34,068 bases of DNA from positions 533-34,600 of the forward strand of contig JAGWBY010000003.1 in the NCBI GenBank assembly GCA_021295675.1, written 5' to 3'. The position numbers were made by a program, and so were the translations under genes. The notes under the pieces were generated by a model. The model made no database searches and was not told the DNA's origin. It saw only the letters and a program-made list of their open reading frames with translations. This document shows, piece after piece, positions 4,098 to 30,170 of this stretch. Within the stretch, counting starts at the first letter, position 1. Each line of letters starts with the position of its first letter. This DNA is from Candidatus Latescibacterota bacterium (GTDB lineage Bacteria > Latescibacterota > UBA2968 > UBA8231).

Positions 4098-4103
4098 GTT
4101 GAC
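4068..4103 (+). repeat. purL 3'-end direct repeat, copy A (left island boundary)
   Basis: These 36 bases span the last codons of purL (NARDFAVQS and the TAG stop) plus six bases beyond. They match 30135-30170 in the same orientation at 33 of 36 positions, and the last 16 bases (CCAGAGCTAGGTTGAC) are identical. Similarity ends one base later (C versus G). Duplicated gene 3' ends flanking foreign DNA are typical of site-specific integration that regenerates the target gene. Calling this an attachment-site-like boundary is an inference. Confidence 0.7.
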
Positions 4104-4164: not shown

Positions 4165-5484
4165 TCAATAATCCTCGCAGCTGTGGTATCCAGAGCCGTA
4201 GTAATCGGTGATGTAGCTGACACCGTAGCGCCCGTGCACCGGCGGCTTTTCCTCGAACCAATGATCCTCGGGACAATTAGCTCCCACCACTTCTTCTACC
4301 GCCGGAAAGGACTGCTCAAAGCCGCCGGTGCCCGTGCTGACCACAGAGCGTATCTCGGGAAATGACACCAGCAGGGGCGGAGCCGCGCCTTCCTCGTTGT
4401 CCTCTTCTCCGGTGAGCAAAACAGTCTCGATCCCCTCGCGCTCGCAGGCCCTGACCGTGAGGGCGGTCTCCAAAAACCGCTGGCCCCGGAAGTCGGTGGT
4501 TACAATAGCTCCTTGGGCCCCTAAACTCTTGGCCAGCAAAGCAGCGCGCTCGGCCGCCATATCCTTCTCTCCTTGGGTGGTCCAATTCGTGCGCTGCACA
4601 ATGCAGCCTAGGAAGTTGCAACTCTCGCCGTGCCGCCGAGCGAGATTGACGACCGTTGGGTTGTTAGACAAATGCCAGCAGGTAGAGCGTCCAGAACCCA
4701 TGAAGAGGGCTCCGTCCATCATCTCCGTGGGGTAGAGCAGCCAAGGTGCCGAGAGCCTCGTCTGTCCGTATACCGAGGTGCCGCGCTGGGATCGCGGACC
4801 CACCTGCCACTCGTTGGACGCCAAATGGGTTATGAAGACAAAGCTGGGGAGGGCGGGATCTGTCGAGGTGAGATCGAATACTTCCAGTTCGGGCGGTTCC
4901 AACTCCGAGGTGATCTGGGCCAGCCGGTCCACTATCCTCAAGACCGCGGCTTGGACGGCCAGATGGCAGTCTTCCTCCTCACCTCGGGGATTTTCCAGCG
5001 TCACACAGACTAGGTTGAGTTCGTCGTACGGGGGTATATTTCCCGGGCCGGACATGTCGAGGAACCCGCCGCGGTTTTCCCGCGGAACACCTGCGCTTGC
5101 ACTCGGTTTTTGAGCCGTCTGCTTGGAACGCTGGCGCGCACTCGGTCCTAGAGGGCCGGCGTCGGTGCAGAGCGCGACGGCGATTTGGCCCAGCCGATGG
5201 GTCCGCCCCTGCCCCACGGCAGTGGCTGGCCGCCCGCACACTCCGGGGTAAAACATCCCCGGACCCGCCACTTTCACTTTGGGCTCGTATAGGTTCTGCA
5301 TTTTTACGATGCGCACGGATTCACTGGGCCGCACCAAGTCGATGCTCGCCGAGGGGATATCACCCCCTTGCAGGACGAGATCCAGCAACTCCTGCCTGTC
5401 GATCTCTAGCCGCCCGTCGTGCCAGCGGGTTTCCGACCCAAAACTCACCTCATCGACCGGAAAGGTACCTAGTTCAAGACGCAT
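4165..5484 (-). CDS. grdE: GrdE-like component B alpha/beta proprotein of a glycine/sarcosine/betaine reductase
   Basis: The 439-aa protein follows the GrdE/GrdG/GrdI family from end to end: MRLELG start, RPSESVRIV, EPKVKVAGPG, GEGRTH-like GQGRTH near residue 93, DMSGPG at 143-148, YPTEMMDGA near 251-259, and VVSTGTGG near the end. In clostridial complexes the proprotein is cut at a Cys (242 in Clostridium sticklandii, in an SGNCVSAC context) to give a pyruvoyl group that binds the amine substrate as a Schiff base. Here the aligned stretch is MGSGRSTC, so the pyruvoyl Cys corresponds to Gly265 and only the later Cys269 remains. There is also an extra stretch rich in S, A, Q, K and R before DMSGPG. 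The start at 5484 is chosen for the family N terminus and a GAGGAGG SD; it overlaps the grdB stop by 11 bases. It is the last gene of the long minus-strand run. Confidence 0.85.
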   Translation of the reverse strand: MRLELGTFPVDEVSFGSETRWHDGRLEIDRQELLDLVLQGGDIPSASIDLVRPSESVRIVKMQNLYEPKVKVAGPGMFYPGVCGRPATAVGQGRTHRLGQIAVALCTDAGPLGPSARQRSKQTAQKPSASAGVPRENRGGFLDMSGPGNIPPYDELNLVCVTLENPRGEEEDCHLAVQAAVLRIVDRLAQITSELEPPELEVFDLTSTDPALPSFVFITHLASNEWQVGPRSQRGTSVYGQTRLSAPWLLYPTEMMDGALFMGSGRSTCWHLSNNPTVVNLARRHGESCNFLGCIVQRTNWTTQGEKDMAAERAALLAKSLGAQGAIVTTDFRGQRFLETALTVRACEREGIETVLLTGEEDNEEGAAPPLLVSFPEIRSVVSTGTGGFEQSFPAVEEVVGANCPEDHWFEEKPPVHGRYGVSYITDYYGSGYHSCEDY

Positions 5485-6823
5485 GGATTCCCTCCTCGGC
5501 GGACGATGCGTCCGGATCGAATAGGGTGGGGCCGGCGACTTCGGTCTGCAGGGCCTGCAGAGCCGTTTCGACAATCCGGCGCATCAGTCGCCGATCGTTT
5601 TCCTCGTTCAAATTCGGATCGCCGCACACGTGCTCCACGCGCACCCCTCTCACCACCCGGCTCACTTCTACCGACAGAGGAATCATGGGAATAGCGCTTA
5701 CCACAGCCACGTTAATGCCCGCCCGGGCCAGTTCTTTGCTCATCGTCGCCCCGCAACGATTGCAACTGCCTCAGGTGGCCACCAGTAGCGCCGCTCGTAT
5801 CTGGGCTCTTTTGAACTCTTGGGCGATCTGCGCTCCCATCTGCTTGGCTTGGGAAACGGCAGTGCCGTTTCCCACTGTGGAGAAAAAGTGCGGATAAATC
5901 GCACCGATTTCCCCTTCTGCTTCCAATTCTCGCAAAACGGGCAACGGCAACACATAGCTGGGCTTTTTGGTGTTGAGGATGTGGGGGTTGAAGCCCCCGT
6001 GGACGGATTCCCAGTCCTCTATACTCAGCGCCTGCTGCCCTTCGATAGAGTAGCGAAAAGCCTCCTGAGCGAATCCAGAGACCTGTCCGTCGGGATTGCC
6101 CCGGGGCACCAATCCACCGCTGGTGACCAGTCCCAGAGTTACCTGTCCAAGATCCTTTACGGGCGGGGGCGGCGGCACGGTTTCGTACTGCTGGAGCAGT
6201 ACTTCTGATGGATAAGGTCGCTCGTGCACGCGGGCCTCCAGCATTTCGATCGCCCGCTCCCAACCAGGCTGTTGACGCACGACGGATCTTCTGAGGCCTG
6301 TGGGCAAATAGCCCTCCTTGGCCGCAGGGCCGAGTCCCTCGCCGCGAGCCAGCTTTGCGCCTAATTCGATCATGCGGGTGAGGATAGCCTGCATCTCCGT
6401 CGCCCGAGTACCCGTAGGTACGCACACCAGCTCTCGCCGGAAGGTAGTGTACCCCGGGTTCTCGGGGTACATGCCGGTGATGGCCGGGATGCCCGCCTCT
6501 TTAGCCACGGCGCACATCTGGGCGCACGCCACTCCGTAGCGCCCCGCGTCAAAGGCCGGGCCGGCGAGTACCAGATGCGGGGCGTAGTGTTCGAGGGCTT
6601 GGCGGGCGGCAACCGCCGCTTGTTCTCCTTCTTCGACGAAATAATTGTCGCCGCAGACAAACGTGGCCACCACGGTCCCGCGGTCGCCCAACATCTGCTG
6701 GACAGCACGGCCCGGCCCTACGGCACCTTCCTCGACCTGCAGGGGGATATTGGCGTGTTCCTCAGCACCGATGCCCCCGAAAAACTGATTCAGATAGTGG
6801 ACTACCCGCAGTGGTTCGACCAT
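5474..6823 (-). CDS. grdB: GrdB-like selenoprotein, component B gamma subunit (in-frame UGA read as Sec)
   Basis: A conventional ORF ends at TGA 5773-5771 after 350 residues, but the same frame stays open to 5474 and the product matches GrdB throughout. Landmarks are VVHYLNQFFGGIGAEE (7-22), CGDNYF, LAGPAFDAGRYGVACA, GMYPENPG, LVTSGGLVPRGNPD and STVGNGTAVS before the TGA. After it comes GSCNRCGATMSKELARAG, matching the clostridial U-G-T-C-T-R-C-G-A-T-M context. The full product is 449 aa with Sec351 and a UxxC pair (U351-G-S-C354). Family knowledge: the selenolate attacks the substrate bound by component B and forms a carboxymethyl-selenoether passed to GrdA. An 8-bp hairpin directly downstream can serve as bacterial SECIS. 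A GGGGTGA SD precedes the ATG. Substrate (glycine, sarcosine, betaine or other) cannot be told from sequence. Confidence 0.92.
5742..5760 (-). promoter_or_regulatory. Candidate bSECIS hairpin of grdB
   Basis: The mRNA ten bases 3' of the UGA (5773-5771) folds into an 8-bp stem, AUCGUUGC / GCGACGAU with one U-G wobble, closed by a GGG loop. The loop starts 19 bases after the UGA. Length, distance and a G at the loop start fit the bacterial SECIS pattern recognised by SelB, and the hairpin lies inside the reading frame as bacterial SECIS elements do. Confidence 0.7.
5771..5773 (-). other. Selenocysteine UGA codon of grdB (Sec351)
   Basis: An in-frame TGA sits between VAT and GSCNRCGAT, exactly at the catalytic Sec position of the GrdB family. 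The context U-G-S-C is the UGSC form rather than the U-G-T-C I recall for Clostridium. Conservation of the protein on both sides argues against a true stop or sequencing error. Confidence 0.9.
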
Positions 6824-6868
6824 AAATTCACCCCTAGATTCCGATAGACGGCACGAGGCCGGCTCATC

Positions 6869-7339
6869 CTAAAGAGTAGTGTTTCGTTGCCGCACTTCCC
6901 GCACGGCTTCCACGATGGCTTCGGCCTCGTCCATGACCATCTCGGCCACGCCTACTTCGGCCTCGTACACCGCGCTGTCCACGACCGCTTTGATCTCGGG
7001 CTCTATAATATGGTAGACCGGAAGTCCAAGGGCTTGACCGGCTAGGGCACCCGCCCAAGTCGGATCCCCTTCGGTCATGGTCAGGGCGTATAGCTTGCTG
7101 CTGTCTGCGGTCGGGGTGCCCAAAATGACGATGACATCGTCGCTGCCCGTGCGCTCAACGGTCCGTTTGATTTCCTCTTGACCTTCCAGGTCAACGCCGC
7201 CTGCGGCCGTTCACACAAAGCAATAGGTCACCTCTAGGACCACTTCGGCACCGGCGCTGCGGACGCAGTTCCCGATGCTCGTCCCCGGCACCCCATCCCG
7301 CTCGCCTAAGACGATTGTTTTTTTCCCTTGCAGTTCCAT
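6869..7339 (-). CDS. grdA: GrdA selenoprotein, reductase protein A (in-frame UGA read as Sec)
   Basis: The product is 156 aa when TGA 7213-7211 is read as Sec. It starts MELQGKKTIVLGERDGVPG, reaches the redox motif C40-F-V-U43 followed by TAAGG, and ends with GDPTWAGALAG, YHIIEPE and a short acidic-basic tail. GrdA is the small, family-defining selenoprotein (about 155-160 aa) shared by glycine, sarcosine and betaine reductases. It takes the carboxymethyl group onto its Sec and hands an acetyl thioester to component C; thioredoxin re-reduces it. A stop-codon-naive caller would see only the 84-aa C-terminal part starting at MGTPTADSS. The ATG lies four bases after grdC, with AGGAG inside the grdC end as its SD. 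A 6-bp SECIS-like hairpin follows the UGA. Confidence 0.95.
7178..7194 (-). promoter_or_regulatory. Candidate bSECIS hairpin of grdA
   Basis: Downstream of the Sec codon the mRNA contains UUGACC-UGGAA-GGUCAA, a perfect 6-bp stem with a 5-base loop that has G in its second position. The loop begins 23 bases after the UGA. Both values fit the bacterial SECIS pattern. The element lies in the coding sequence. Confidence 0.7.
7211..7213 (-). other. Selenocysteine UGA codon of grdA (Sec43)
   Basis: The TGA falls in CFV-TGA-TAAGG, matching the CxxU motif of GrdA (Sec44 in Clostridium). Homology continues on both sides in one frame, so it is read as Sec rather than stop. Confidence 0.93.
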
Positions 7340-7343
7340 CTGC

Positions 7344-8801
7344 TCAACTCCTGTTGGGGTTGTTTTCAACGATAAAAGACACGCCATCGGACATCTGCGT
7401 CATTCGGCCTAGGAACAGGCTGCCCTTGGCGAGGAACATAGCCCTTTGCATAGTGCCATCTCGCATGCGATCCAGCGCATGGCCTAGGTAGGGAATGCCG
7501 GAGGCGATATGCCCTTGGGTGGGCGAAAAACCGGGCATCCCGTACGTCTGGATGAAAGCCGGTATCTCCGACCGGTCAATCTCTTTGCCGAGGACAGCCA
7601 AGGCGGCAAGCACTTGGTAATTCCGCCTAGGGACATCACCGCTGCCCGCGGGCTCTGTGGCCTCGGGATTGTGCAACTCGGTAGCGTACTTGTCCACATC
7701 TCTGAACCTCAAGCCCAGCCTAGCCAGAGGTCGGGAGACCAGCTCCTCGAAGACGGCCTGCTGGGACGAACCAGCCCCGACACCGTGCCGTCCTACCGAG
7801 TCCAGCCGCAACACCGGACTGAGGCCGTCGTCCGGGCCCACCAGTACTGCTACCGCCGCCAACACATCCTCTATGATGGGGTGGTCGCAGCGCAGATGGC
7901 CCTGAAACTTCATTCCTAGCTTGGCCAAGGAGGATCCTCCCACCACAACGACTTCGTTGAACACGCCTGAACTCACCAGAGCCCCAGCCATCACCAAGGC
8001 GTGCGCCGGCCCACAGCAAAAGGCCTTGACGTCGGATCCGGTCGCATTGCTCAGACTGCACATCTCGCCGATGGCTTTGGCCAGATTCCCTCCTCCTCTC
8101 TGGTAGCGCTCTCCGACGGCTTCCTCGCCGCTATTGATAATATAATCGACCGCAGTCGGATTGAGGCGGGCGTCGCGCAACAGCGTCCTCAGCGCCATAG
8201 CGGCCGAGACTTTGCACGTCAGGTTTTCGAGCAACACATCCGCGGTCAGAGTGTCATCTTCTTCGTGGGCGCGATGTATGCATCCGACTAGACGCCCGTT
8301 TTTGAGGAAGAGAGGCAGCGCTGCTTCCAAGTCAGCCACTCTAGTCTGGATTGCCGCGTAGGGCTGGCCGTTGTCGAGCCGCTCCAATTCGGAGTCGTGC
8401 ACCAAGCTATGGTCGGCCAAGGCTTCTCTAACTTCAGAGGTGAATTCCTCTTCCAGCCAGACCAAGTCGAACGCATCGGCTATCTTGAGGAGCCCATAGA
8501 GGGTTTCTTCCGGCATGATCTCGCCGTGGGGATAGCTCCGCTGCCAAGGACTGTTCCCTGCGAACCAAGGCCGCTCGCGGGTGGCGAGTTCGTCGGGCAT
8601 AACTCCCCCCAGAAAGACCTGATTGGGGGCATAGGCCGCCGCTTCTGGATACGAGCGAAGATGCAGCGCAATTTGCTCCCAAAGCTCCGGGGTTTTCAGG
8701 AGTTCGCGGCGCGGTTTGGAACCATAGCGCACCAATCCGGGGGCATGCGCTAGGAAGTATCTAGCGCCCTTGATCACGGGTTGGACAGCGTTCGGCTTCA
8801 T
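7344..8801 (-). CDS. grdC: Glycine/sarcosine/betaine reductase component C, beta subunit (GrdC)
   Basis: This 485-aa cytoplasmic protein matches GrdC along its length. Landmarks are VIKGARYFLAHAPGLV near the start, APNQVFLGGVMPDELA, GEIMPEETLYGLLKI, RLVGCIHRAHEED, ENLTCKVSAAMALR, QRGGGNLAKAIGEM, FCCGPAHAL (about 261-268), GRHGVGAGSSQQAV, PEATEPAGSGDVPRRNY and GMPGFSPTQGHI. The fold is thiolase/FabH-like. With GrdD it takes the acetyl group from GrdA and releases acetyl phosphate. No grdD lies beside it or elsewhere in the window, which is unusual. The chosen ATG (8801-8799) overlaps the TGA of the upstream PPIase gene (8800-8798) as ATGA, implying translational coupling. A longer start at 8846 is possible but adds a non-family N terminus. 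Confidence 0.93.
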   Translation of the reverse strand: MKPNAVQPVIKGARYFLAHAPGLVRYGSKPRRELLKTPELWEQIALHLRSYPEAAAYAPNQVFLGGVMPDELATRERPWFAGNSPWQRSYPHGEIMPEETLYGLLKIADAFDLVWLEEEFTSEVREALADHSLVHDSELERLDNGQPYAAIQTRVADLEAALPLFLKNGRLVGCIHRAHEEDDTLTADVLLENLTCKVSAAMALRTLLRDARLNPTAVDYIINSGEEAVGERYQRGGGNLAKAIGEMCSLSNATGSDVKAFCCGPAHALVMAGALVSSGVFNEVVVVGGSSLAKLGMKFQGHLRCDHPIIEDVLAAVAVLVGPDDGLSPVLRLDSVGRHGVGAGSSQQAVFEELVSRPLARLGLRFRDVDKYATELHNPEATEPAGSGDVPRRNYQVLAALAVLGKEIDRSEIPAFIQTYGMPGFSPTQGHIASGIPYLGHALDRMRDGTMQRAMFLAKGSLFLGRMTQMSDGVSFIVENNPNRS

Positions 8802-10330
8802 CGCGTATTGCCGGTATTCAACCCGGCCAGATGCTCGTCGAACCACTTTACCTCCCCGGCGTAGACCTTGCGCAACGAGTCGATGTAGACTTCAAAAGCC
8901 CGCCTCGCATGCTTCAGCTTGACTTGACGACGGACGTGCTTGCGCACCTTTGCAAAGGGGATCTGGTGCGGTTCAATGGGCTCGTCTAGCCTGAATACAG
9001 CGAACTTGCCGTCCAGTTCCACCGGCCCTTGGATCTGCCCGACTTGCTGCCTTTCTTTGCGCTGGAACAGACTGTAATAGGGCGAACCCTGGAGGGCATA
9101 AATGACCATATGTCCGTCTTGATCGACGTGCATATGCCCGTGTCCGGGATCCGTCCTTGGACGCACTGAGTGATTGTGGGCCAGATCCTCCAAGCTTTGT
9201 CCCGCCTCTGCGGCCCGTCGGATATCCACAGCTTCCTCCCGGGTATTGAGCAGGACCTCGGTCAAGTAGACCGCTCCAGGGACGCTGTACCCTTCTATAT
9301 GCGCCTCGTAGTACTGCTGCACTTCTTCCTCTGAAGGGGGAGGGAGCAGATCGACTACTTCTCGCTGGCGCAGTTGTCTGATCAGCAATTCTTCGTATTT
9401 GGCGTCCTTCCAGGCCAAAAACTCGGCGTTTTGATCGAACCCTTGCCGGCGGCCCTCCCGCAGCAGTAGGGTATCGGACAGGGCCTTGGGATCGCTAGCA
9501 ATGGATTGAGACAGACTATCTTTTTTCTTCAGCTCTTCGAGGTATTCGAGGTGCCGGGCCTTCCATTTGCGCCGGCGCACTTTTGTGGCCAATTGCTCCT
9601 TTAGCCGGTCAAAGGGGAGTCTATAGCGATCGAGAATCGTGAGCACTTCGTATCCCTCTACTGTGCGGATGGGCGCGCTGATGCCCCCCACAGGCAGATC
9701 GAAGATCACCTCCTGCAGCACCGGGGCCACGTCCTCCGGGCCGAAGAAGTGCCCCAAGTCCCCTCCCTTTTCCGTGGCGGCCTTTAGGGAGCGAGCTGCT
9801 GCCAACGCGGCAAAATCCGCTCCTTGCTCCAATTCGCGGACGACTTTTCGGGCCTCTTCCTCGGTGGCGCAGAGAACGCGGGCGGGCCGGACCATCCAGC
9901 CCAGATCGGCTTCTTCGTACTCCTGGAGCAGGTCTCCTTCGGTCACTTCAACCTGCCGGGTGATATATTCGGCTGTAACTTGGTAGATCAATTTTTTATT
10001 GGCGCGCTGCACCAGTTCTGTTCTCAACTCCGGCATCCTCCTATATCCCTTGTTCCCGGCTTCGAGCAGCATTAGCTGGCGGTCCACCAAGCTCTGGAGG
10101 TGTTCGCGCTGGGCCGCCGCTTCGGAGGCGACTGCATGAAAGGCCGTGGGTAGGTTCTGTTCGTACTGCCGCAATGCTCCTGCGGTGATCACCTCGTCGC
10201 CGACCTGTACCAGCGGCGGGTCCGCCGCGGTCTGCGGCTGAGGTTCACAACTGCCAAGAACGAATAGACCAACTGCGGCCAGCAACCAAGCCCAGCAAGG
10301 CGACCTGCGTCGTTTTCCACGACAATTCAT
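8798..10330 (-). CDS. Parvulin-type peptidyl-prolyl isomerase lipoprotein (SurA/PrsA-like)
   Basis: The 510-aa product has a basic N terminus, a hydrophobic stretch and a lipobox LGSC, so it should be lipid-anchored at about Cys28. A SurA-like N-terminal region (VQVGDEVITAGALRQYEQ) follows. The first rotamase-like domain, about residues 145-240, includes GADFAALAAARS, GGDLGHFFGPEDVAPVLQ and FDLPVGGISAPI. A long charged helix comes next, then a second degenerate rotamase-like domain, about 350-457. Such proteins fold or escort outer-membrane and secreted proteins in the periplasm, which fits the barrel-like and FlgD-tailed proteins encoded just upstream. It starts 9 bases after the preceding lipoprotein gene with an AGGAAG SD and overlaps grdC by ATGA. 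The organism-level role is inferred. Confidence 0.82.
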   Translation of the reverse strand: MNCRGKRRRSPCWAWLLAAVGLFVLGSCEPQPQTAADPPLVQVGDEVITAGALRQYEQNLPTAFHAVASEAAAQREHLQSLVDRQLMLLEAGNKGYRRMPELRTELVQRANKKLIYQVTAEYITRQVEVTEGDLLQEYEEADLGWMVRPARVLCATEEEARKVVRELEQGADFAALAAARSLKAATEKGGDLGHFFGPEDVAPVLQEVIFDLPVGGISAPIRTVEGYEVLTILDRYRLPFDRLKEQLATKVRRRKWKARHLEYLEELKKKDSLSQSIASDPKALSDTLLLREGRRQGFDQNAEFLAWKDAKYEELLIRQLRQREVVDLLPPPSEEEVQQYYEAHIEGYSVPGAVYLTEVLLNTREEAVDIRRAAEAGQSLEDLAHNHSVRPRTDPGHGHMHVDQDGHMVIYALQGSPYYSLFQRKERQQVGQIQGPVELDGKFAVFRLDEPIEPHQIPFAKVRKHVRRQVKLKHARRAFEVYIDSLRKVYAGEVKWFDEHLAGLNTGNTR

Positions 10331-10339
10331 CCGGTCTTC

Positions 10340-11122: not shown

Positions 11123-11165
11123 ACCAGATTATCCTATTCGGGGTTTGATCGCATCTAGGAGTATC

Positions 11166-13376: not shown

Positions 13377-13413
13377 AATCGATACTGCCTCCAAGTTCCG
13401 CCGAGAAGCGAAC

Positions 13414-16158
13414 TCACTCGCCGAAACCAGCGTACAGCGTGAGGAAGAGGCTGCTTTCCGTATGAGCCTTGGCCGCGGACTCCCGATCGACCCTGGCGAT
13501 GTGGATGCCCGCCTGGGCCCACAAGTCGTAGCCCAAGTAGGCTACGTTGTTGGTGAGTTGAAGAGTGTAGATCAGCTCATTGCGATCCGAGCGGACCGGA
13601 TCGTTTTCGAGGATTTCCCTGAACTGGTTGACGTAAAAGTATTCTAGGCCGACCTGCAGGGTGGTCCTGGATAGGATCGAAATGCGGCCTATTAGGGACA
13701 AAAGCTCCCGTAGTTCGGTGGTAGCCACGCGGATCTGGTCTTCTTTACGGGTGGGCCGGTAGCGCAAAAACTCGTTCTTCCAGCGCGGCTCCAGCCGCAG
13801 AGCGCCCAAGTTAAAGGTGTATTCCGCCTTGTTGATGATCCCCAATAGGCTGGCTATCTCCCGGATGGCTTGCTGCTGCTTGAAAGGCCGCTCAGCGAAG
13901 TCCACTTGGCGGAAGAACTCGTATTTGAAGCGGTTGACAAAGCGCAAGTTGTCTGTGGCGTATCGGTAGCCCAAGTACAGGGTATTGGCCCAAGCATTGC
14001 GAGCGGGCAGGGGGTCTTCAAAAGGCACGAAATCTCCTCGCGATCCCTCTCGGAGCACCCATTCTATTACGTTGTCGCGGATATCGTCCTCAACCCGGCG
14101 CAGATTGTCGTAGAATTGCAGCCGTCCTAGCCGCGGAAAATCCTTCTCGTAGGTCAGCAATAGATAGGTACTTTTGTTCCGCCGATCATCCGCCAATTGC
14201 CTCTCGCGCTGGCGTCCCACGCTCAGACGGGCGTCGGGACCCAGACTGGAACCGACGTAGATATTGTAGCCCCGCCGATCCCGCTTGTAGAGATAGTCCG
14301 GCTGGGTGTCGTTCTCAAAGCGATCGACAATACCGTTGTTGTTCATGTCGATCCCAAAGAGGAAGTCCGGCCGATCCGAACTGTAGCGCAGGAAGGGCTC
14401 TTCGTAATCGGGGATAGTGTTGGGACGCCGGAGATTGTCATTCTGGTTGAAATCGACGATGAAGTCTCTGTTTTCGTCCCAGCCTGGAAAGACTTCGGTA
14501 TCGCGGGTAAAACCGCGGCGGAACCAGTCGGGAAAGCGGTCCTGGTCGTCGTTGTCCTCGACAAATTCGTAGACAAACTGGCGGTTGTCGTCGTAGAGGA
14601 TTGGTCCTAGATCATTCTGGATGCCCGCTAGGAAAGTGCTGGTACTGTAGCTTGGATCCATGCTGTAGGCTTCGGCAAAAAAGAACAGCGGATGAGCCCG
14701 TTTGTACAGATTCAGAAACCAAGCCTGTCCGCTCTCCAGAGAAGGCGTGTGTTCGGTCACATCGGTTTCCAGGCGGCGTGGATAGCGCTTGTGTTGCCGG
14801 TTGTGGGCGAATTCGCCCGCTAGGAAAAATCCGTACGCATTTTCCACATCGAGGGTAAAACCGAAGATTTCGTTGCCTACGGGCAGCCCGTAATGAAGGG
14901 AGATAAAACGCTGGTTGGAGCCGTCCTGGACGTTGCCCGGAGCGCGAATTGTGCGCTCGGGAATGCCCTCGGACAGCGTCACCGGTTGGCGTTTCTGGTT
15001 CACTTGGCGGTTGGAGGTCAGGTCGATGCGATAGTCATTGGCCAGCAGCAGCACGAATTCGACGCTCTTGATCCGATCGGGAGCCGGACCAAAGGCCTGG
15101 CGGTATTCCGGCCCCTCCAGATCGTATATCAGGGTTATGACTTCACTGCCATCGGCCGAGAGAAAGCCTTCCTGGCGGAAGCCGCCTTGGATAGTGGGAA
15201 AAAAGTTGAGGATGGAATTGTCGTCCAGACGACGGCGATTGCTAAAGCGCTTGCCGTCGATATTGGTGATGATGATCTCTTCCTGGAAGAAGGCCGCACC
15301 GCCATCGCCGTCTTCGGGCGAGTCGTCGCTCAAGCGGATCTCAATGCGCGATACATCGTTGTTCTGCCCTTCGGTCAAGGTACCCCTGAACGGGTTCCCC
15401 GAGAAGGCCTGATTCTTGGTCTGTGCATTGAACGCGCTGACATAGGTAGTCCCCAACTGGACGAAATCACCCAACTGGACGGTGCCGCGACCTCCCAATA
15501 GATTGGTGTCATTGGAGCGCTCACCCGCTCCGGTGGGGCCTTGGTCGCCGACTGCCCCGGCCGCGCTGGGACGCGAGGCAAGGAGGGTGAACTCGTACTT
15601 GTCGCTGGCCACATCGAACTGCATACCAGTAAAGCTCGGTTTGGAAAAGGTCATGGGCGTCAGCGTCGTCCGAATCCTGTCGCCCACGGTCAGGCTGTAG
15701 AAATACTGGCCCTTCGAGTCCGAGGCGATCACCAAGTTATTGAACCAGGATCTGAACTCGCTGCCCTTGAACAGGGCATTCCCGGCTACCTGAGGGGTGG
15801 AGACGCGCCAGTCGTATACGAGTTTGCCGCGGGTGATGAAATTGCCGTAGAGATCGTAGAAATAGTCCCCTTCGAGCGAGGTGTTCACGTACCTGAGGTA
15901 GTGGCTGCGAGCGTAGTTAGAATACTGCCACTGGCGCCACTGGAATTCGTAGAACAATTCCTGGGGGACGTACCACTTCTTGACCGCGGGATCCAAGGCA
16001 TCAAAAAGCACTCCCGAACCCTGCAATTCATAGGAAATCTCGCCGCCGCGCCGCTCCCCCAAGCGGGTGCCGATTTCTTGGGCTTGGAGCGGCTCCTCTG
16101 CGAGCAGGGCACACAGGACGAAAAAACATACGAAACTTCTGCCGTATGGTCTGTGCAC
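13414..16158 (-). CDS. Large outer-membrane beta-barrel-like protein of unknown family
   Basis: The 914-aa product starts at GTG behind a strong AGGAGGG SD and carries a signal peptide cleaved near EPLQAQ. The sequence is dominated by amphipathic beta-strand-like stretches rich in aromatic and charged residues (YLGYRYATDNLRFVNRFKYEF, GLEYFYVNQFREI, YTLQLTNNVAYLGYDLWAQAGIHI). It ends LTLYAGFGE, with aromatic residues near the C terminus as in barrels. Two Asp-rich EF-hand/TSP3-like loops, DENRDFIVDFNQND and DMNNNGIVDRFEND, lie near residues 535-605 and may bind calcium. I recognise no named family. It is flanked on both sides by FlgD-tailed secreted proteins, suggesting an outer-membrane partner, pore or scaffold for them. 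A purely structural protein is an alternative. Confidence 0.78.
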   Translation of the reverse strand: MHRPYGRSFVCFFVLCALLAEEPLQAQEIGTRLGERRGGEISYELQGSGVLFDALDPAVKKWYVPQELFYEFQWRQWQYSNYARSHYLRYVNTSLEGDYFYDLYGNFITRGKLVYDWRVSTPQVAGNALFKGSEFRSWFNNLVIASDSKGQYFYSLTVGDRIRTTLTPMTFSKPSFTGMQFDVASDKYEFTLLASRPSAAGAVGDQGPTGAGERSNDTNLLGGRGTVQLGDFVQLGTTYVSAFNAQTKNQAFSGNPFRGTLTEGQNNDVSRIEIRLSDDSPEDGDGGAAFFQEEIIITNIDGKRFSNRRRLDDNSILNFFPTIQGGFRQEGFLSADGSEVITLIYDLEGPEYRQAFGPAPDRIKSVEFVLLLANDYRIDLTSNRQVNQKRQPVTLSEGIPERTIRAPGNVQDGSNQRFISLHYGLPVGNEIFGFTLDVENAYGFFLAGEFAHNRQHKRYPRRLETDVTEHTPSLESGQAWFLNLYKRAHPLFFFAEAYSMDPSYSTSTFLAGIQNDLGPILYDDNRQFVYEFVEDNDDQDRFPDWFRRGFTRDTEVFPGWDENRDFIVDFNQNDNLRRPNTIPDYEEPFLRYSSDRPDFLFGIDMNNNGIVDRFENDTQPDYLYKRDRRGYNIYVGSSLGPDARLSVGRQRERQLADDRRNKSTYLLLTYEKDFPRLGRLQFYDNLRRVEDDIRDNVIEWVLREGSRGDFVPFEDPLPARNAWANTLYLGYRYATDNLRFVNRFKYEFFRQVDFAERPFKQQQAIREIASLLGIINKAEYTFNLGALRLEPRWKNEFLRYRPTRKEDQIRVATTELRELLSLIGRISILSRTTLQVGLEYFYVNQFREILENDPVRSDRNELIYTLQLTNNVAYLGYDLWAQAGIHIARVDRESAAKAHTESSLFLTLYAGFGE

Positions 16159-16203
16159 AATACCCTCCTGTCCAGGCTCGAGTGGAATTATCTAGACCTC
16201 GAC

Positions 16204-19200
16204 TCAATAGACCACGTGAACGGGAAGCACGACTTTTTCGTCGCCTTGGTCGGCTTCGACTTGGATCCGGCACAGGTAGATTCCCGGAGGCACCAGCGCC
16301 CCGGACGGACTGCGTCCATCCCAAGTAAACAGCAGTTCACCTGCTTTGCCGATGCTCTCTATCACCCTGCCCTCCTGCACTTGGACGGCTCGACCGACTA
16401 GCCGGCCAGACAAATCGTATAGCGCCACTTCGACGGGGCGCTCTTGCAGGATCTGGATCAGGGCAAATTCGATCTGCAATTGATCGTTGACGCCGTCCCC
16501 GTTGGGCGTGACAAAGGGGTGCATCTGCAAAACGCGGACCAACTCGTCGGCGGACTGGTCCAGACTGATCCGGACGGCGCTGTGTTCGACTAGCTCAGTG
16601 GCGTCCTGACCGTTGAATTCGACCTGCTGAAAGTCCATTTCAGGGTTTTGAGAATTGCGCACGGAACTGTACAATTCCGTCCCATCCCGGTACATTTTTA
16701 CGGCCAACTGCACCTCGGCAATGGCGTGGGTCTGTCCTCGGTTCTCTTTGTTGAGGGAAAAGGGCAGACGAAAGTAGAGCGAATCTGAACCCGTCCGCGC
16801 CAGCATTTGCAGAGACTGGCCCTCGGCATTGCGGAAGAGGCTGTCTCCGGGTGCCCGCTGGAAGTAGTCGGTGAAACGGGTTTCCGTGGCCCTGATTGTG
16901 GTCTGCAAGCTGTCCAGCGAAGAGGTTTCGCGAATCACTCGCACCTCGCCGAGACGGACACCGCGCAATGTGGCTGGCTGCTTGGTGAGAATGAGGATCT
17001 CGTCGAATCCCTCCTGCACCTCCGGCTGCAGCGGATCGGGCCCAGCCGCCCGGATAAAATACGAATAGGTCTGCAATTCCAGCGGGTTGACTTGGCGGGG
17101 AGGGCGATAGTCCAGCGGCTCGGACTCCAGATCGTGCAAGGGGCGCTCCAGCCCCTGTGGAGTCAGCAAGGCGAGCTCAGCACCCGTGTTCAGGGCCAGC
17201 GGCGCGACGAGGTCCACGCGGAGTGCTTTGAGGCGAACGGTGGCATTGGGATCTTCCGATTGAAGATTTACCCGAATCTGTAGGAACTTGCGGGGGCTGG
17301 GAGAAGTGACTATGGCCTCTCTGCGGCCCCCAGTTGGCCGGTAATTCCGGCTCCAAGAACTCCACCCCACAAAAGCCAATTCGCCCTCCCTATCCGGGGT
17401 TTGGCGGGGAGCCCGACGCAGCTTCTTGCCGTCCTCGTCGATCTTGCCGTCCCCGTCGTTGTCGATGAAATCGATCTTATCTTCGTCTTCTTGGCCGTCC
17501 CCATCATCATCGTGCTTGCTCTTGTGACGTTTGCTATTAGGCAGACTCAGCCAGTGGTTCCAGACTCGCCAACCTAGCTCCAGATCGCTATAGCGTTCCG
17601 CGTCTATTTCCGTGCGAACAAGACTTCCTGCCCCGTCATCGACTACCTCGAAATAGGTGAAGAGCGAGTCGGTCTGCTCACTGGTGCGGGTCTGGATTTG
17701 CAAGCTGACCTCCGGGTGCAGATCGAGGGGTTCGGCCACCTCGATGAAGGCTCCGCTCGGATCTTGCCGACGGACGATGGCCTCGCCCTCCCAAGCAATC
17801 TTGGACAGGGTCGTCTGTCGATCTTCGCCTTGGCGTTGCAGGCGGATGGGTTGGGAGTAGAGCCACACGCTGACGGGGTATCCGCTGCCGTACAACTGTA
17901 GCTCCGCGAGATTGCCAAAAGATCCGTAGCGACCGGATTGACGCCCACTGATGTCAATGTCCCGGACTTGGAGGAAGCGAACTTTGCGCGGGGCGAATTT
18001 CTCACTGAACATCCGCACTTGGGTGGTCCGGTTGTCCACCTTGCCAGGGCTGATGATATTCTCCCACTGCAGCCCGTTTTCCAGTTGGGAGAAGTCCTCG
18101 GGAGTGTCGATCTTGACCGGATTCAACAGCGTGCCATCCGAGACCAGAAATTCGTGTCCGAGGAAGTAGTTGCCGTTCATAACGACGTACATCCCGTCCG
18201 TCCAAAAGGTCGCCCCCAGGTCAATCCACATAGTCGCCCTAGCATAGAGGGCCGACCACACATTAGCCGTCCACCAGGTATTGTAGAGACCGTCCGTTGA
18301 CCACCAAGGAGCGCCTCGCCCACCATCCTCATAGGAACTTCCCGCTCGCTTGGTGAGGTCGCGCACCAGATTGTCTCCCTTGGTCCACACTTGCACTTCT
18401 TGGACGCGGGGCACTTCCCCCACAAAGTAGCGGATGGGTCCCTTGCGGTCCGGGGATAGACCTTGGTAGACCTCCTCGGACACCTCGGCCAGCAGTCCAC
18501 CCGCTGTTATCCGTTGATAGATCCGCTTGCCCTGCCGCTCCGGCGCCAGAGCCTCGTACGCCACCCGAGCCGAATCCCCCTCGCCGATCGAGATCCGACG
18601 GTCAAAGTCGCTGTCCGTGGCCTTGATCTTGATATAGTGGAGGAAGGAACTCTGCATGTCTGGAAAGCCGTCTAGATCAAAGTCCGCTCGATCGAGAGGC
18701 TCGGCGGGGAAGGTAATCTGGCGCCAGCGGCCATCGGTGTCCACCGGCTGCAGGTCCCGGTCCGTGGCTTTGCCCAACAGCGTGAATTTGATGTTCTGAG
18801 TGTCCGTACTCAGCGCATGCTCGCCCATTGAGACCAGTACCATAAAGGTCTTGAGTGGGTCGCCGAGGTCTTCCTCGTCCGGGGCACCGGGGAAGACCAC
18901 GGTGATGCTGTCCACTACCACCAGTTGACCTAGGTCCACTAGGAGTTCCCACTTGCGCAGTCCCTCTGGATTGACGTCGCTGGCGGCCGGTTCCCAGTAG
19001 GTCGTCAGACTGCCATCACTAGCACTAGGAGCCAAGCGGTTGTTGGAGAGACTCGAAGCCCCGGCCGCTACAATTTCCCCATTGGCGCGAATTATGTCTT
19101 GATAAAAAAGTCGGCCGGCATCGAGGGACGCGTTTTTCTTGTTGGTGAAATATCGGGGACGGATTCCCTCGCCATCGACGATGAACAAACCCGTGGAGTC

Positions 19201-19380
19201 CACCGCCACTTTTAGGCTGCTGACGAGGTCGTTCTGGTACTCCCAGTTCCGCCAGTGCGAGGGAAGGTCGACGTAAACTGCCTCATCGGTAAGACGGTAC
19301 GCTTGCCCTTGGGCGAGGAGGGGATGGAGCATTCCCCCCAGAGCTAGGCTCAAAATGAGCCACAGGATGTACTTTTTCAC
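16204..19380 (-). CDS. Secreted protein with two discoidin-like regions, TSP3-like Asp repeats and FlgD-like C-terminal domain (second of three)
   Basis: I place the start at GTG 19380. It has GGAGGG nine bases upstream and leads straight into a signal peptide (KKYILWLILSLALGG); an ATG at 19425 would add 15 polar residues. The 1058-aa product has two putative F5/8-type-C-like regions (SASDGSLTTYWEP with WELLVDLGQLVVVDSITV; STDGLYNTWWTANVW with MWIDLGATFWTDGMYVV). An Asp-rich calcium-loop segment (DDDGDGQEDEDKIDFIDNDG, about 630-665) follows. The C-terminal FlgD-like module contains FVTPNGDGVND, LYDLSGRLVGRAV, WDGRSPSGALVPPGIYLCRI and ends VVY. A role as an extracellular surface or matrix protein is inferred. 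Confidence 0.8.
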   Translation of the reverse strand: MKKYILWLILSLALGGMLHPLLAQGQAYRLTDEAVYVDLPSHWRNWEYQNDLVSSLKVAVDSTGLFIVDGEGIRPRYFTNKKNASLDAGRLFYQDIIRANGEIVAAGASSLSNNRLAPSASDGSLTTYWEPAASDVNPEGLRKWELLVDLGQLVVVDSITVVFPGAPDEEDLGDPLKTFMVLVSMGEHALSTDTQNIKFTLLGKATDRDLQPVDTDGRWRQITFPAEPLDRADFDLDGFPDMQSSFLHYIKIKATDSDFDRRISIGEGDSARVAYEALAPERQGKRIYQRITAGGLLAEVSEEVYQGLSPDRKGPIRYFVGEVPRVQEVQVWTKGDNLVRDLTKRAGSSYEDGGRGAPWWSTDGLYNTWWTANVWSALYARATMWIDLGATFWTDGMYVVMNGNYFLGHEFLVSDGTLLNPVKIDTPEDFSQLENGLQWENIISPGKVDNRTTQVRMFSEKFAPRKVRFLQVRDIDISGRQSGRYGSFGNLAELQLYGSGYPVSVWLYSQPIRLQRQGEDRQTTLSKIAWEGEAIVRRQDPSGAFIEVAEPLDLHPEVSLQIQTRTSEQTDSLFTYFEVVDDGAGSLVRTEIDAERYSDLELGWRVWNHWLSLPNSKRHKSKHDDDGDGQEDEDKIDFIDNDGDGKIDEDGKKLRRAPRQTPDREGELAFVGWSSWSRNYRPTGGRREAIVTSPSPRKFLQIRVNLQSEDPNATVRLKALRVDLVAPLALNTGAELALLTPQGLERPLHDLESEPLDYRPPRQVNPLELQTYSYFIRAAGPDPLQPEVQEGFDEILILTKQPATLRGVRLGEVRVIRETSSLDSLQTTIRATETRFTDYFQRAPGDSLFRNAEGQSLQMLARTGSDSLYFRLPFSLNKENRGQTHAIAEVQLAVKMYRDGTELYSSVRNSQNPEMDFQQVEFNGQDATELVEHSAVRISLDQSADELVRVLQMHPFVTPNGDGVNDQLQIEFALIQILQERPVEVALYDLSGRLVGRAVQVQEGRVIESIGKAGELLFTWDGRSPSGALVPPGIYLCRIQVEADQGDEKVVLPVHVVY

Positions 19381-19458
19381 TTTGTCTTTTCCCTCCGCTT
19401 TGGATAGCTTGCCGGGCGCGTTCAACCCGCGGAGCAGATTGTCGAATATGGAAAAAGT

Positions 19459-21954
19459 CTAATAAGCCACAGCTACCTGTTTTAGCACGACCGACTCCTT
19501 GGTATCCGTATCTCCTCTGATACGCAGCAGATAGATCCCCGGAGGCACGGGTTCGCCGTTTTCGTCTCGACCATCCCAGGTCTCTGTGTAGCCTCCTGAT
19601 GTCAACTGGAGTTCCTCGATTAGGCGCTGGCGGCGGCCAGTCAAATCGAATACTTCCAGACGCACCAGACCGGGTCTTATCAGCCGCAATACATCATAGG
19701 AGATGACGAGCTCGTCGTTGACCCCGTCGCCATTGGGCGTGAACGGATTGGGAGCGACCTCAACATTGTCCACCAACTCTTTGCCTTGGGCCGAAATATC
19801 GGCCACCACGCTCAATGAGTTGCGGTCCTCCAGCAACTCGGCAGCGGCGAAATTCACTACATTCCCCTCTCCCACTTCCTGGAGCAACAAAAAGCCCAGC
19901 GTGTCCGGACCAGCTTCGCTCTCATTGATGACCACAACGCCTCCGTCGACAAACTCCGTCCGGTCGCGCGCCCCTAGCGTGTCGAGAAAGACGTGGGCTT
20001 GAAACCGAGTTCTGAAATCAATCACCCGGCCGATGAATTTTACCCGGATGAGAGCAGTTTGGGAAATCCCGTCTTCTGCAGTTCGCAGCCGCGGCAACTC
20101 CACTGCGAAAAACTGATCCTCTATAGCCACTTCCTTGAACTCGTCCTCACCTGGCTCTCGCCGATCCCCCAGCGGAATCCGCCGCAGTTCCCGCACCGGA
20201 CTGTCCTCCAACTCTACGCTCACCGATTCGATTGCGCTAATCCGCGCCGGAGTGCGGATATGTAGCCGGTTGAAGCCTGCATTTTCCGGTGCCAGACTCG
20301 TCTGTAGCGCGAACACGAACAGAGTGTCCCGGCCGGCGATTACATCTGCGGCCGGAGCAATTTCCCCTTTAGCCTCCCGGGCCAGCAGCGGAGTCTCAAA
20401 TTCAAAGCGCAGATTGCGGATTGCCGTAGCCGCCCGCGCACTCTCACTGGAGAAGTCGATTCGGACTTGGAAGTAGGGTCGCCCACTTGGAGCGTTGATA
20501 GCGTCTCCGCTCTCCAGCGGCTGGAAGCCACTCCAAAAGCGCAAATCCGGTTCTACTTTGCTTATCTGATTGCCGGGCAACTCTTGGTACTGTTCGCGCG
20601 TGAGACGCACGGCTAGGCGTTCCTCATCGCTCAGGGCGCTGAAAATCTCGCGGGCATCCAAGCGCAACTCGGGGGAGTTCAAGTCGACCTGCTGGTCAAA
20701 AGTCTCGGATCCCGTCCGCCGGTCGACGACGAGAGCCCCGCCATCCTCCTGCCGCTGCCATTCGAACTCGTCGTCGAAATCGGTCTTGCGGAACAGGATC
20801 TCGGACTCCTGGGTCAAACCAGTCTGAAAGCTGAGTACGGCCTGCGACTGGCTTGGATCGCCTATCTTTTCTTCCTCCCAGAAAATCCGCCCTAGGGTGG
20901 ATGGAGGAAGCGCTAGAACCCGGGTGACATAGGAGGCGCTGGGCAGAAAGCCGTCGGCAAATGCCTCCATTTCCGCCAGATCGTAGTCGAGGTTGGTGTC
21001 CACATCTAGTCGGAAGTAGCGCAGTCGGCGCGGCGGCTCAAAGAAGACCGCCGCAGTGTCCTGCCGGTTGACCGGAACACTCTGCGCAATTACAAAAGTC
21101 GGCAGGGCTTCGGCTACCTTGATGTACTTGGGAAAGCCTGGATTGCCATTCTCCGGATCTTCGAGGTCCAGGCCTGCTATGGTTCTCTCCGTGCCGGGAA
21201 CTCCCAGGCGGAGGGTATAGGCCGAGAGCCGCAGTGCTCCGGGTTTGGGATAAAACCGAATCAGGGACAGAGGGAAAAAGCGATCCAGGTCCACGACGAG
21301 AATCATCTTCTTGACGATATCTTGTCCGGGCTTGTCCACGCGCTCGAAAGAGGTGTGCGGATTGCCGTCGAATATCTCGGCGAACTCCACCTCTTTCTGA
21401 TCCTGAGTGAGAGCGTGCTCGAAATAGGTCGGGCTGGTGAGATTGATATTCTTGCTGAACTTGGTTGCTACCTCGGTCTTGGGAAAAGACTCGGCTACGT
21501 TGATCAGGACTGGCACCTGCTGCACACCGGCCCGCAGCAAAAGCCGCACGTCGCCGATGCTGCCGGGCAGGTTGCTCAGGCGGGGGAGCAAGATTTCTCC
21601 CACCTCGATCACCCGCCCGTTTTCCCGTTCCACTTCCCGCTCGGCCGCCACGTCCTGTTGCGCGATATTCCGGGAAAAGCGGAACAGGCGATCCCGCTGA
21701 TCAGCGCTCAACACGTCCCCATCGAGGGGAATATCGGGAACCTCTGCTATTCGGCGTGGCTCGAGCGACGCGATGCCGTCCGGAATGCGTCCGAAGTCGA
21801 TAGAATGGAAGAATTTGGCCGGTCTAAGGGGAGGCTGCTCAGCCTCCTCCCAGGATATATCTTTGGGAATGGAGAAAATCTGGATTTCGGCTAGGGAAGG
21901 ACAGGATACTGCGCCGACCAGAAGTAGGCAAATCCAGTAGATCCCACAGGGCAT
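19459..21954 (-). CDS. Secreted protein with discoidin-like region and FlgD-like C-terminal domain (first of three)
   Basis: The 831-aa product begins with a hydrophobic signal (MPCGIYWICLLLVGAVSCPS). A possible lipobox (VSC) inside it makes lipoprotein processing an alternative. A discoidin-like region at about 185-320 contains FAEIFDGNPHTSFERV, MILVVDLDRFFPLSLIRFYP and RRLRYFRLDVD. A long beta-rich middle follows. The C-terminal module is VAPNPFTPNGDGVND, VFDLTGRRQRLI, WDGRDENGEPVPPGIYLLRI, ending VAY. It is the promoter-proximal gene of the long minus-strand run, about 55 bases downstream of a near-consensus promoter, with GGAG as a loosely spaced SD. It is paralogous in architecture to the two other FlgD-tailed genes, though the N-terminal regions differ strongly. 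Confidence 0.8.
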   Translation of the reverse strand: MPCGIYWICLLLVGAVSCPSLAEIQIFSIPKDISWEEAEQPPLRPAKFFHSIDFGRIPDGIASLEPRRIAEVPDIPLDGDVLSADQRDRLFRFSRNIAQQDVAAEREVERENGRVIEVGEILLPRLSNLPGSIGDVRLLLRAGVQQVPVLINVAESFPKTEVATKFSKNINLTSPTYFEHALTQDQKEVEFAEIFDGNPHTSFERVDKPGQDIVKKMILVVDLDRFFPLSLIRFYPKPGALRLSAYTLRLGVPGTERTIAGLDLEDPENGNPGFPKYIKVAEALPTFVIAQSVPVNRQDTAAVFFEPPRRLRYFRLDVDTNLDYDLAEMEAFADGFLPSASYVTRVLALPPSTLGRIFWEEEKIGDPSQSQAVLSFQTGLTQESEILFRKTDFDDEFEWQRQEDGGALVVDRRTGSETFDQQVDLNSPELRLDAREIFSALSDEERLAVRLTREQYQELPGNQISKVEPDLRFWSGFQPLESGDAINAPSGRPYFQVRIDFSSESARAATAIRNLRFEFETPLLAREAKGEIAPAADVIAGRDTLFVFALQTSLAPENAGFNRLHIRTPARISAIESVSVELEDSPVRELRRIPLGDRREPGEDEFKEVAIEDQFFAVELPRLRTAEDGISQTALIRVKFIGRVIDFRTRFQAHVFLDTLGARDRTEFVDGGVVVINESEAGPDTLGFLLLQEVGEGNVVNFAAAELLEDRNSLSVVADISAQGKELVDNVEVAPNPFTPNGDGVNDELVISYDVLRLIRPGLVRLEVFDLTGRRQRLIEELQLTSGGYTETWDGRDENGEPVPPGIYLLRIRGDTDTKESVVLKQVAVAY

Positions 21955-22010: not shown

Positions 22011-22039
22011 AATTATAGTTAATATTTCAGAGCGTATCA
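22011..22039 (-). promoter_or_regulatory. Near-consensus sigma70-type promoter of the surface-protein/grd run
   Basis: On the minus strand TTGATA (22039-22034) and a perfect TATAAT (22016-22011) are separated by exactly 17 bases in an AT-rich stretch. The first gene starts at 21954, giving a leader of about 50 bases. No comparably strong promoter was seen further downstream in the short gaps of the run, but internal promoters inside genes were not searched exhaustively. Confidence 0.7.
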
Positions 22040-22087
22040 ATACGGTTTTTATGGGGAATCAATCGGTTGGGACAGCGTTTTGCATCC

Positions 22088-24907: not shown

Positions 24908-25000
24908 GGCTATAGCTATATGTACACGTCTAAAGGTAGAGGTGAATAGATAGGGACCATCCGCCGAACTCCAACGCACCGGCGAACCTCTGGTGGCTTA

Positions 25001-30164: not shown

Positions 30165-30170
30165 GTTGAC
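30135..30170 (+). repeat. purL 3'-end direct repeat, copy B (right island boundary)
   Basis: This matches 4068-4103 in 33 of 36 positions in the same orientation; mismatches fall at 30145, 30146 and 30154. Beyond 30170 the GC-richer flank begins, leading to the Gfo/Idh gene. Confidence 0.7.

What the first reader, a model, noticed from the sequence alone, without database searches (positions are those of the whole stretch)
4165..21954. Surface-assembly genes and a Grd-like selenoenzyme appear to form one operon
Ten genes on the minus strand are spaced by at most about 80 bases, with overlaps at PPIase/grdC (ATGA) and grdB/grdE (11 bases). One near-consensus promoter precedes the first. I know of no described link between glycine-reductase-type complexes and secreted FlgD-tailed proteins, an OM barrel and a parvulin lipoprotein. 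The reductase might feed on, or respond to, a substrate captured at the surface, or the genes may share only regulation. This is the best candidate for an undescribed system in the window.
Basis: partly seen in the sequence, partly recalled or inferred. Interest (0 to 1): 0.8.

Follow-up and report, generated by a model that had tools for sequence, protein, structure and literature searches.

The report
Surface-protein operon carrying selenium-dependent reductase cargo
In an uncultured bacterium of the Latescibacterota type, genes for outer-surface proteins and a selenium-containing reductase sit head to tail inside what looks like one inserted DNA island, but in the relatives that could be examined the two parts do not occur together, so the pairing looks like a local acquisition rather than a conserved system.

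Summary
Ten minus-strand genes (21954-4165) are spaced by at most 45 bp, grdC starts inside the PPIase gene, and grdA and grdB carry Sec-type UGA codons. The conserved-system idea is only partly supported. The surface half (FlgD1-FlgD2-barrel-lipoprotein-PPIase) is a standing Latescibacterota cluster, but no grd gene lies in any of 80 related barrel loci (59 with room to show it), and GrdA is in 0 of 64 phylum genomes (control 3 of 3). Segment 4104-30134 is a 26-kb insertion between purL and Gfo/Idh, neighbours in relatives, flanked by a 36-nt direct repeat of the purL 3' end. Its surface proteins are 36-70% identical to native copies, while purL is 90-94% identical to the nearest genomes. The reductase is unusual: GrdE and its 120 nearest homologs lack the Asn-Cys pyruvoyl motif, and no grdD lies in the window. 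Best reading: an accessory island in which a Grd-type reductase for a non-Schiff-base X-CH2-COO- substrate fills the 3' cargo slot of a surface operon. In passing: the barrel family is hugely expanded (39 close copies in one 6.27-Mb chromosome) and co-localises with DUF6785 membrane proteins.

The parts
276..4097 (+). purL (FGAR-AT), host flank of the island
   Evidence: 90-94% identical over full length to G015, G003, G058, G010, G016, G057; Pfam
4068..4103 (.). left direct repeat (attL-like), 3' end of purL
   Evidence: 36 nt, 33 of 36 identical to 30135-30170
4165..5484 (-). grdE-like, component B subunit without the Asn-Cys pyruvoyl motif
   Evidence: PF09338 218 bits; alignment
5474..6823 (-). 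grdB-like selenoprotein B, UGA at codon 351 (UGSCNRC)
6869..7339 (-). grdA, selenoprotein A, UGA at codon 43 (CFVUTAAG)
7344..8801 (-). grdC, component C beta subunit (alternative start GTG 8846)
   Evidence: NF040746 641 bits, cut-off 450; starts
8798..10330 (-). parvulin-type PPIase
   Evidence: PF13145, PF00639
10340..11122 (-). lipoprotein-like 260-aa protein, conserved cluster member
   Evidence: 54-60% in ten native clusters; no Pfam family
11166..13394 (-). FlgD3, FlgD_ig/CHU_C-tailed protein, not at this place in native clusters
   Evidence: absent between barrel and lipoprotein in relatives
13414..16158 (-). predicted outer-membrane beta-barrel of a hugely expanded Latescibacterota family
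16204..19425 (-). FlgD2, CHU_C-tailed protein with a sub-threshold F5/8C match
19459..21954 (-). FlgD1, CHU_C-tailed protein, first gene of the proposed operon
22012..22040 (-). sigma70-like promoter, 11 of 12 matches (consensus match only)
22088..24073 (-). DUF6785/DUF6784 membrane protein, copy a
24095..24979 (-). PhyH-type 2OG oxygenase
25111..26019 (-). p302, unnamed protein found upstream of FlgD1 in native surface clusters
   Evidence: 45-52% in seven native clusters
26450..28507 (+). DUF6785/DUF6784 membrane protein, copy b
28538..30010 (-). TPR protein
30135..30170 (.). right direct repeat (attR-like)
   Evidence: the native purL-Gfo/Idh spacer continues from here, 58 of 67 aligned bases identical to L085
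30238..31221 (+). Gfo/Idh oxidoreductase, host flank, next to purL in relatives

Best explanation
A 26-kb accessory island sits between purL and Gfo/Idh in a Latescibacterota chromosome. It carries a divergent copy of a standing surface-assembly cluster, and the position after the PPIase, held by a GDSL/TPR gene in native clusters, holds grdC-grdA-grdB-grdE. The ten genes are probably co-transcribed. The surface products (FlgD/CHU_C-tailed proteins, barrel, lipoprotein, parvulin) are exported and displayed, probably by the host's type IX route. In the cytoplasm GrdB selenocysteine attacks the alpha carbon of an X-CH2-COO- substrate and passes a carboxymethyl group to GrdA, then to GrdC. Because GrdE lacks the Asn-Cys motif that yields the pyruvoyl group, X is probably not an amine held as a Schiff base but a better leaving group, such as an onium (betaine type) or a halide. 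The link between the two halves is mainly co-transfer and shared expression. Shown: gene order, overlaps, insertion with direct repeats, no grd beside the barrel in the relatives examined, loss of the motif. Inferred: co-transcription, export route, substrate class, shared regulation.
For: Insertion: purL and Gfo/Idh lie 69 and 78 bp apart in G003 and G058 with one copy of the repeat, and Gfo/Idh lies beyond purL in 13 of 16 relatives' regions; the 36-nt repeat flanks the window segment; both flanks match the same near relatives at 90-98%, so chimerism is unlikely. Divergent cluster: window barrel is 65-70% to ten native loci; nine of these compared pairwise are 72-99% to each other; p302, FlgD1, FlgD2, lipoprotein and PPIase are equally remote from all. 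Cargo slot: the PPIase gene is followed 3 bp later by a GDSL/TPR gene in L003 and L010. Operon. Sec: motifs; tRNA-Sec at 68-72 bits in eight near relatives and SelB over cut-off in seven of them; 117 of 120 listed GrdB relatives end at 320-364 aa, as expected if gene callers stop at the UGA. Motif loss. SprA in 4 of 4 near relatives.
Against: No recombinase was recognised among 16 island proteins scanned. No transcript data; promoter and terminator scans barely exceed chance. The whole genome of the window is not held, so grdD elsewhere cannot be excluded. SECIS folds are weak (z -0.57 to -1.95). Codon usage of grd falls inside the range of near-relative genomes, so composition does not prove foreign origin. 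18 of the 121 GrdE rows, the window's among them, have another cysteine near the lost motif, so an alternative processing site is not excluded. Contexts of the closest grd relatives were not readable.
Confidence: 0.58

Rival explanations
1. Capture-and-use locus: the surface module and the DUF6785 membrane proteins bind and import the substrate that the reductase consumes, like a polysaccharide-utilisation locus with a reductase as cargo.
For: The barrel family is massively expanded (48-71 matches per genome, fragments and remote copies included, in eight relatives; 39 close copies in G015) and 27 of 39 have a DUF6785 gene within 15 kb against 7.6 +/- 3.2 by circular shift; two DUF6785 genes sit in the island; grdC starts inside the surface operon's PPIase gene.
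Against: Orthologous modules lack grd in nine loci with 9 kb or more of downstream sequence; no grd in any of 80 barrel loci; the commonest neighbours of eight barrel loci are more surface and TPR/ASPIC genes (first 25 of 93 families shown); small zwitterions would not obviously need such a module.
Confidence: 0.2
2. Chance neighbours: grd was assembled next to the surface cluster in the island and is expressed from its own internal promoter, with no shared function or regulation.
For: Adjacency not found elsewhere. GrdB relatives at 89-97% are listed with contigs of 31108, 136886, 43119, 6177, 186238 and 95743 bases, and none of these lengths occurs among the 120 listed of 857 barrel homologs, whose best full-length member is 70% identical (one 561-aa fragment 81%). 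A 9-of-12 promoter-like match lies upstream of the PPIase gene.
Against: grdC start lies inside the PPIase gene; no promoter-like site within the PPIase gene itself; grd and surface codon usage indistinguishable (z 0.4).
Confidence: 0.18
3. Ordinary amino-acid (glycine or sarcosine) reductase for Stickland fermentation that happens to lie here.
For: GrdA, GrdB, GrdC of standard families; best GrdB model is sarcosine GrdF.
Against: Substrate-specific NCBIfam cut-offs missed by far (GrdF 427 of 800 bits, GrdB 373 of 602, GrdH 363 of 775); Asn-Cys motif absent; no grdD or thioredoxin gene recognised in the window.
Confidence: 0.04

Closest known systems
Glycine/sarcosine/betaine reductase complexes (Grd), e.g. 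the Enterococcus gilvus operon trxB-thioredoxin-grdA-grdC-grdD-component B-grdH (L131) and P. acidaminophilum grdG-grdF (L129)
   Same: GrdA CFVUTAAG, GrdB UxxCxxC, GrdC with conserved FabH-type cysteine region; identities 33% (GrdE), 38-42% (GrdB), 45% (GrdC), 49% (GrdA)
   Different: No grdD or thioredoxin genes beside it; GrdE lacks the Asn-Cys motif with a five-residue deletion against GrdG; placed at the end of a surface operon
Fluoroacetate reductase FarB/FarE of Synergistota (PMC10838667, passages read)
   Same: FarE also lacks the two cysteines and is said not to be a proprotein; lateral transfer suggested
   Different: FarB is said to lack the CxxC that GrdB here keeps; NF053623 score 104 against a cut-off of 675; no far transporter or radical-SAM gene recognised here
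GrdE/GrdB relatives of Chloroflexota (P0259, P0299, P0343, P0349, P0355, P0356; P0019 for GrdB)
   Same: Same loss of the Asn-Cys motif; window GrdE nests among these sequences
   Different: Genomic context not seen; no function found in the papers searched
Type IX secretion cargo (CHU_C/FlgD_ig tails)
   Same: C-terminal tail domains; SprA present in 4 of 4 near relatives
   Different: Secretion not tested
SusC/D-type expanded outer-membrane modules of Bacteroidota (recalled)
   Same: Many copies per genome, membrane-transporter-like genes nearby
   Different: No Pfam plug or TonB-receptor domain in the barrel
Integrative elements inserted at the 3' end of a gene (recalled)
   Same: Direct repeat of the gene end, empty site in relatives
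   Different: No integrase recognised in the island

Membership tests
Grd reductase complex | GrdA selenoprotein with CFVUTAAG | tested here: met
Grd reductase complex | GrdB with in-frame UGA and UxxCxxC | tested here: met
Grd reductase complex | GrdC (component C beta) | tested here: met
   NF040746 641 bits over cut-off 450
Grd reductase complex | GrdD (component C alpha) encoded with GrdC | tested here: inconclusive
   none recognised among the window genes; genome not held
Glycine or sarcosine reductase (pyruvoyl type) | Asn-Cys motif for pyruvoyl formation in GrdE/GrdG | tested here: not met
   absent in the window and 120 of 120 nearest homologs; 18 of these 121 have another cysteine nearby
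Grd reductase complex | Selenocysteine decoding machinery in the organism | tested here: inconclusive
   tRNA-Sec and SelB in near relatives; own genome not held
Grd reductase complex | Reductase activity and substrate | not testable with these tools
   needs enzyme assay
Fluoroacetate reductase FarEB | FarE family model cut-off | tested here: not met
   104 bits, cut-off 675
Type IX secretion cargo | C-terminal CHU_C/FlgD_ig tail | tested here: met
   CHU_C over cut-off in three proteins
Type IX secretion cargo | Type IX translocon protein SprA in the host clade | tested here: met
   TIGR04189 over cut-off in 4 of 4 relatives, 0 of 14 controls
Type IX secretion cargo | Actual secretion | not testable with these tools
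   needs experiment
Outer-membrane beta-barrel | Barrel fold | tested here: met
SusC-like TonB-dependent transporter | Plug/TonB-receptor domain | tested here: not met
   no Pfam family in the barrel
Integrative element | Flanking direct repeat and empty site in relatives | tested here: met
Integrative element | Recombinase gene inside | tested here: not met
   none recognised among 16 island proteins; four of these match no family at all

The most novel reading that the evidence does not exclude
Latescibacterota run a previously undescribed, massively expanded outer-membrane module (barrel, T9SS-tailed surface proteins, parvulin, with DUF6785 inner-membrane proteins) that works like an exchangeable capture-and-import cassette, and this island is a mobile version whose catabolic cargo is a pyruvoyl-less selenoreductase for an onium- or halide-type acetate.
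Probability: 0.15. Interest if true: 0.85.

Novelty: new variant of a known kind. Interest (0 to 1): 0.5.

Why it matters
It shows how a selenoenzyme operon can come to lie inside a surface operon in an uncultured phylum whose nearest genomes already carry selenocysteine decoding genes. It draws attention to a large group of Grd-type reductases without the usual pyruvoyl motif, whose substrate is unknown and testable (betaine-like, sulfonium, arsonium or halo-acetates). And it exposes a barrel family present in tens of copies per Latescibacterota genome with no Pfam name, a concrete target for working out how these bacteria handle their surroundings.

Tried and rejected
Assembly chimera: rejected, because both flanks match the same relatives, the native purL-Gfo/Idh spacer resumes right after the second repeat, and the two repeat copies differ at 3 of 36 positions, leaving no long exact match to misjoin.

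Foreign composition of grd: a small flank pool suggested it (z 7.8), but near-relative surface genes also differ from their own purL pool (z 5.8), and against wider gene sets of five near relatives grd is ordinary (0.045-0.062 against own-genome values of 0.052-0.056 +/- 0.011-0.014), while the window's surface genes are ordinary for G015 and G016 but not for G003 (0.053 against 0.032 +/- 0.006). So I do not use composition as proof of transfer. That the near relatives are sponge symbionts is recalled, not shown by a call.

A conserved grd-surface pairing: sought in 80 barrel loci (best 80 of 321 relatives), 64 genomes (GrdA only) and viral contigs (two scans, GrdB and GrdC), not found. PF07355 was run on 17 of the 64 genomes: two weak 218-aa frames aligning to the C-terminal part. 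Genome completeness was not told. SECIS: weak folds, inconclusive. Solved structures: no sequence relative of GrdB or GrdE. The first barrel model with 13 sequences was poor (pLDDT 42.9) and was replaced. The barrel model matches many unrelated barrels with low TM-scores, so no function is read from it; families missing from that list are not excluded.

Hotspot idea: the purL-Gfo/Idh gap varies (28-180 bp in seven relatives, 0.4-1.7 kb in five, 10 kb in G016), but no second repeat copy was found in any of the 16 regions (24 of 36 or better), so a shared integration mechanism is not claimed.

Papers: searches (15-25 listed per search; no paper at all for DUF6785 or DUF6784) showed nothing on grd in Latescibacterota or on this barrel family. 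Passages only were read of PMC10838667, PMC9751293, PMC4454575, PMC12586988 and PMC8318568 (the last mentions Latescibacteria bins and cites glycine reductase only in its references); all others were seen as listings.
Full report
Observation. The ten genes are there and are tightly packed on the minus strand: FlgD1, FlgD2, barrel, FlgD3, a 260-aa lipoprotein-like protein, a parvulin PPIase, grdC, grdA, grdB, grdE. No gap exceeds 45 bp. grdC overlaps the PPIase gene by 4 bp (ATG 8801) or, from a GTG at 8846 that follows a GGAGG, by 49 bp; either way its translation starts inside the PPIase gene. On the minus strand no terminator-like site lies between 10267 and 6808; the best promoter-like site (11 of 12) is at 22040-22012 and a weaker one (9 of 12) at 11074-11045; both kinds of scan barely exceed chance. 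Family searches confirm GrdA, GrdB, GrdC and a GrdE-type protein, rotamase domains, and FlgD_ig/CHU_C tails.

Selenoproteins. grdA has UGA in CFVUTAAG and grdB in UGSCNRC, both in frames that continue, and both align through the UGA with reference genes. 117 of the 120 listed GrdB relatives are 320-364 aa long, as expected if gene callers stop at that codon. RNA folds after the UGA codons are unremarkable. In the phylum search for tRNA-Sec, 47 of 64 genomes pass the cut-off, but weak cross-matches ring everywhere (14 of 14 controls, 5 over cut-off); 42 of 64 score 65 bits or more, and eight near relatives (G003, G004, G006, G010, G015, G016, G057, G058) score 68-72. SelB passes its cut-off in 44 of 64 genomes, including seven of those eight; G058 has only a partial match.

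The organism. purL is 90-94% identical over its length to six genomes of the phylum, among them G015 (OX638377, 6.27 Mb, titled uncultured Latescibacteria bacterium) and G003. No genome is held for the window itself.

An inserted island. Of 16 downstream regions fetched, Gfo/Idh was seen beyond purL in 13; in the other three (G061, G012, G057) none was found before the contig ended. The gap is 28-180 bp in seven (69 bp in G003, 78 bp in G058), 0.4-1.7 kb in five and 10 kb in G016. In the window the same neighbours (Gfo/Idh 91-94%, aldo/keto reductase 94-98%, sulfatase 92-97% to G003, G010, G015, G016) are 26 kb from purL. A 36-nt repeat, 33 of 36 identical, marks both ends: 4068-4103 at the purL 3' end and 30135-30170. 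After the second copy the native spacer resumes (58 of 67 aligned bases to L085); after the first it does not (31 of 56 in a gapped alignment). No recombinase was recognised among 16 island proteins.

The surface cluster. Eighty loci with a barrel relative were fetched, the best 80 of 321. In 11 of them barrel, 260-aa protein and PPIase follow each other as in the window but without FlgD3 between barrel and lipoprotein; FlgD1-FlgD2 precede them in eight, the rest being cut by contig ends. None of the 80 has a match to grdA, B, C or E; 59 of the 80, and nine of the 11 orthologous ones with 9 kb or more, have at least 5 kb downstream of the barrel (in the window grdC starts 4.6 kb after it). Native copies in L003, L006 and L010 are 97-99% identical to each other for barrel and FlgD1, whereas the window copy is 65-70% (barrel), 46-50% (FlgD1, full-length copies) and 36-42% (PPIase) to the native ones. 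The window cluster is thus a divergent, probably transferred block, though an ancient paralog is not excluded. In L003 and L010 the gene right after the PPIase gene is a GDSL/TPR protein; the grd genes occupy that place here.

Distribution of grd. GrdA was found in 0 of 64 genomes of the phylum, and in 3 of 3 control records with known grd genes. Close grd relatives exist (GrdB 96-97% over 78% of the query, GrdE 94%), but their contigs could not be read. The best full-length barrel relative in the same database is only 70% identical (a 561-aa fragment, P0217, is 81%), which suggests that those contigs lack this surface cluster. The GrdE relatives that bear a taxon name are all Chloroflexota (6 of 6 among the 120 listed).

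The reductase. The Asn-Cys dipeptide of the motif is present in GrdG and the Acetoanaerobium protein and absent from the window GrdE and its 120 nearest homologs; 18 of these 121 have some other cysteine nearby, the window's own among them. A quick tree separates the 121 from the three references with full SH-aLRT support. PMC10838667 (passages) states that FarE lacks the two cysteines, is not a proprotein, like betaine GrdI, and that glycine and sarcosine are bound as Schiff bases. Hence the inference that the substrate here is not a Schiff-base amine. No grdD was recognised in the window.

Codon usage. grd and window surface genes are indistinguishable (0.047 against 0.044 +/- 0.007), while both differ from the flank pool (z 7.8 and 9.3). 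Against larger gene sets grd is within range for five near relatives (for G015 0.045 against 0.052 +/- 0.011); the window's surface genes are within range for G015 but not for G003. The two halves share a common make-up, which fits long cohabitation but proves no origin.

The wider family. The barrel gives 48-71 matches in each of eight relatives, fragments and remote copies included. G015 has 39 close copies by my merging, and 27 have a DUF6785 gene within 15 kb against 7.6 +/- 3.2 in circular shifts (p 0.002). Around eight of its loci, 85 ORFs include 24 with FlgD_ig, 23 with CHU_C, 8 with F5/8C and 6 with rotamase domains. SprA is in 4 of 4 relatives tested. The shift test does not correct for general clustering of accessory genes.

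Conclusion. The pairing is real and probably co-transcribed, but it is a local arrangement inside an island, not a conserved two-part system as far as could be searched. The more general leads are the pyruvoyl-less reductase group and the expanded barrel module.

Noticed in passing
L019, L021, L022, L043, L047, L065, L068, L070 and genome G015: Barrel family without Pfam name present in tens of copies per genome, with FlgD/CHU_C-tailed neighbours and DUF6785 genes nearby more often than by chance.
   Followed up: partly
window 26237-26310: Two tandem copies of a 37-nt unit, 97% identical, in the low-GC stretch between p302 and the second DUF6785 gene.
   Followed up: no
L104 (G016:C1): A different insert of 10 kb separates purL and Gfo/Idh in G016, with a FlgD-tail match near its start; G015 and G010 have about 1.1-1.2 kb there.
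   Followed up: no
L081 1255-1668 and L082 1741-2154: 218-aa frames matching only the C-terminal part of GrdB, 32% identical, in G013 and G009; possibly PrdB-like.
   Followed up: no
window 11166-13394: FlgD3 has its best match, 46%, at a separate place in L007, so it may be a later addition to the cluster.
   Followed up: no
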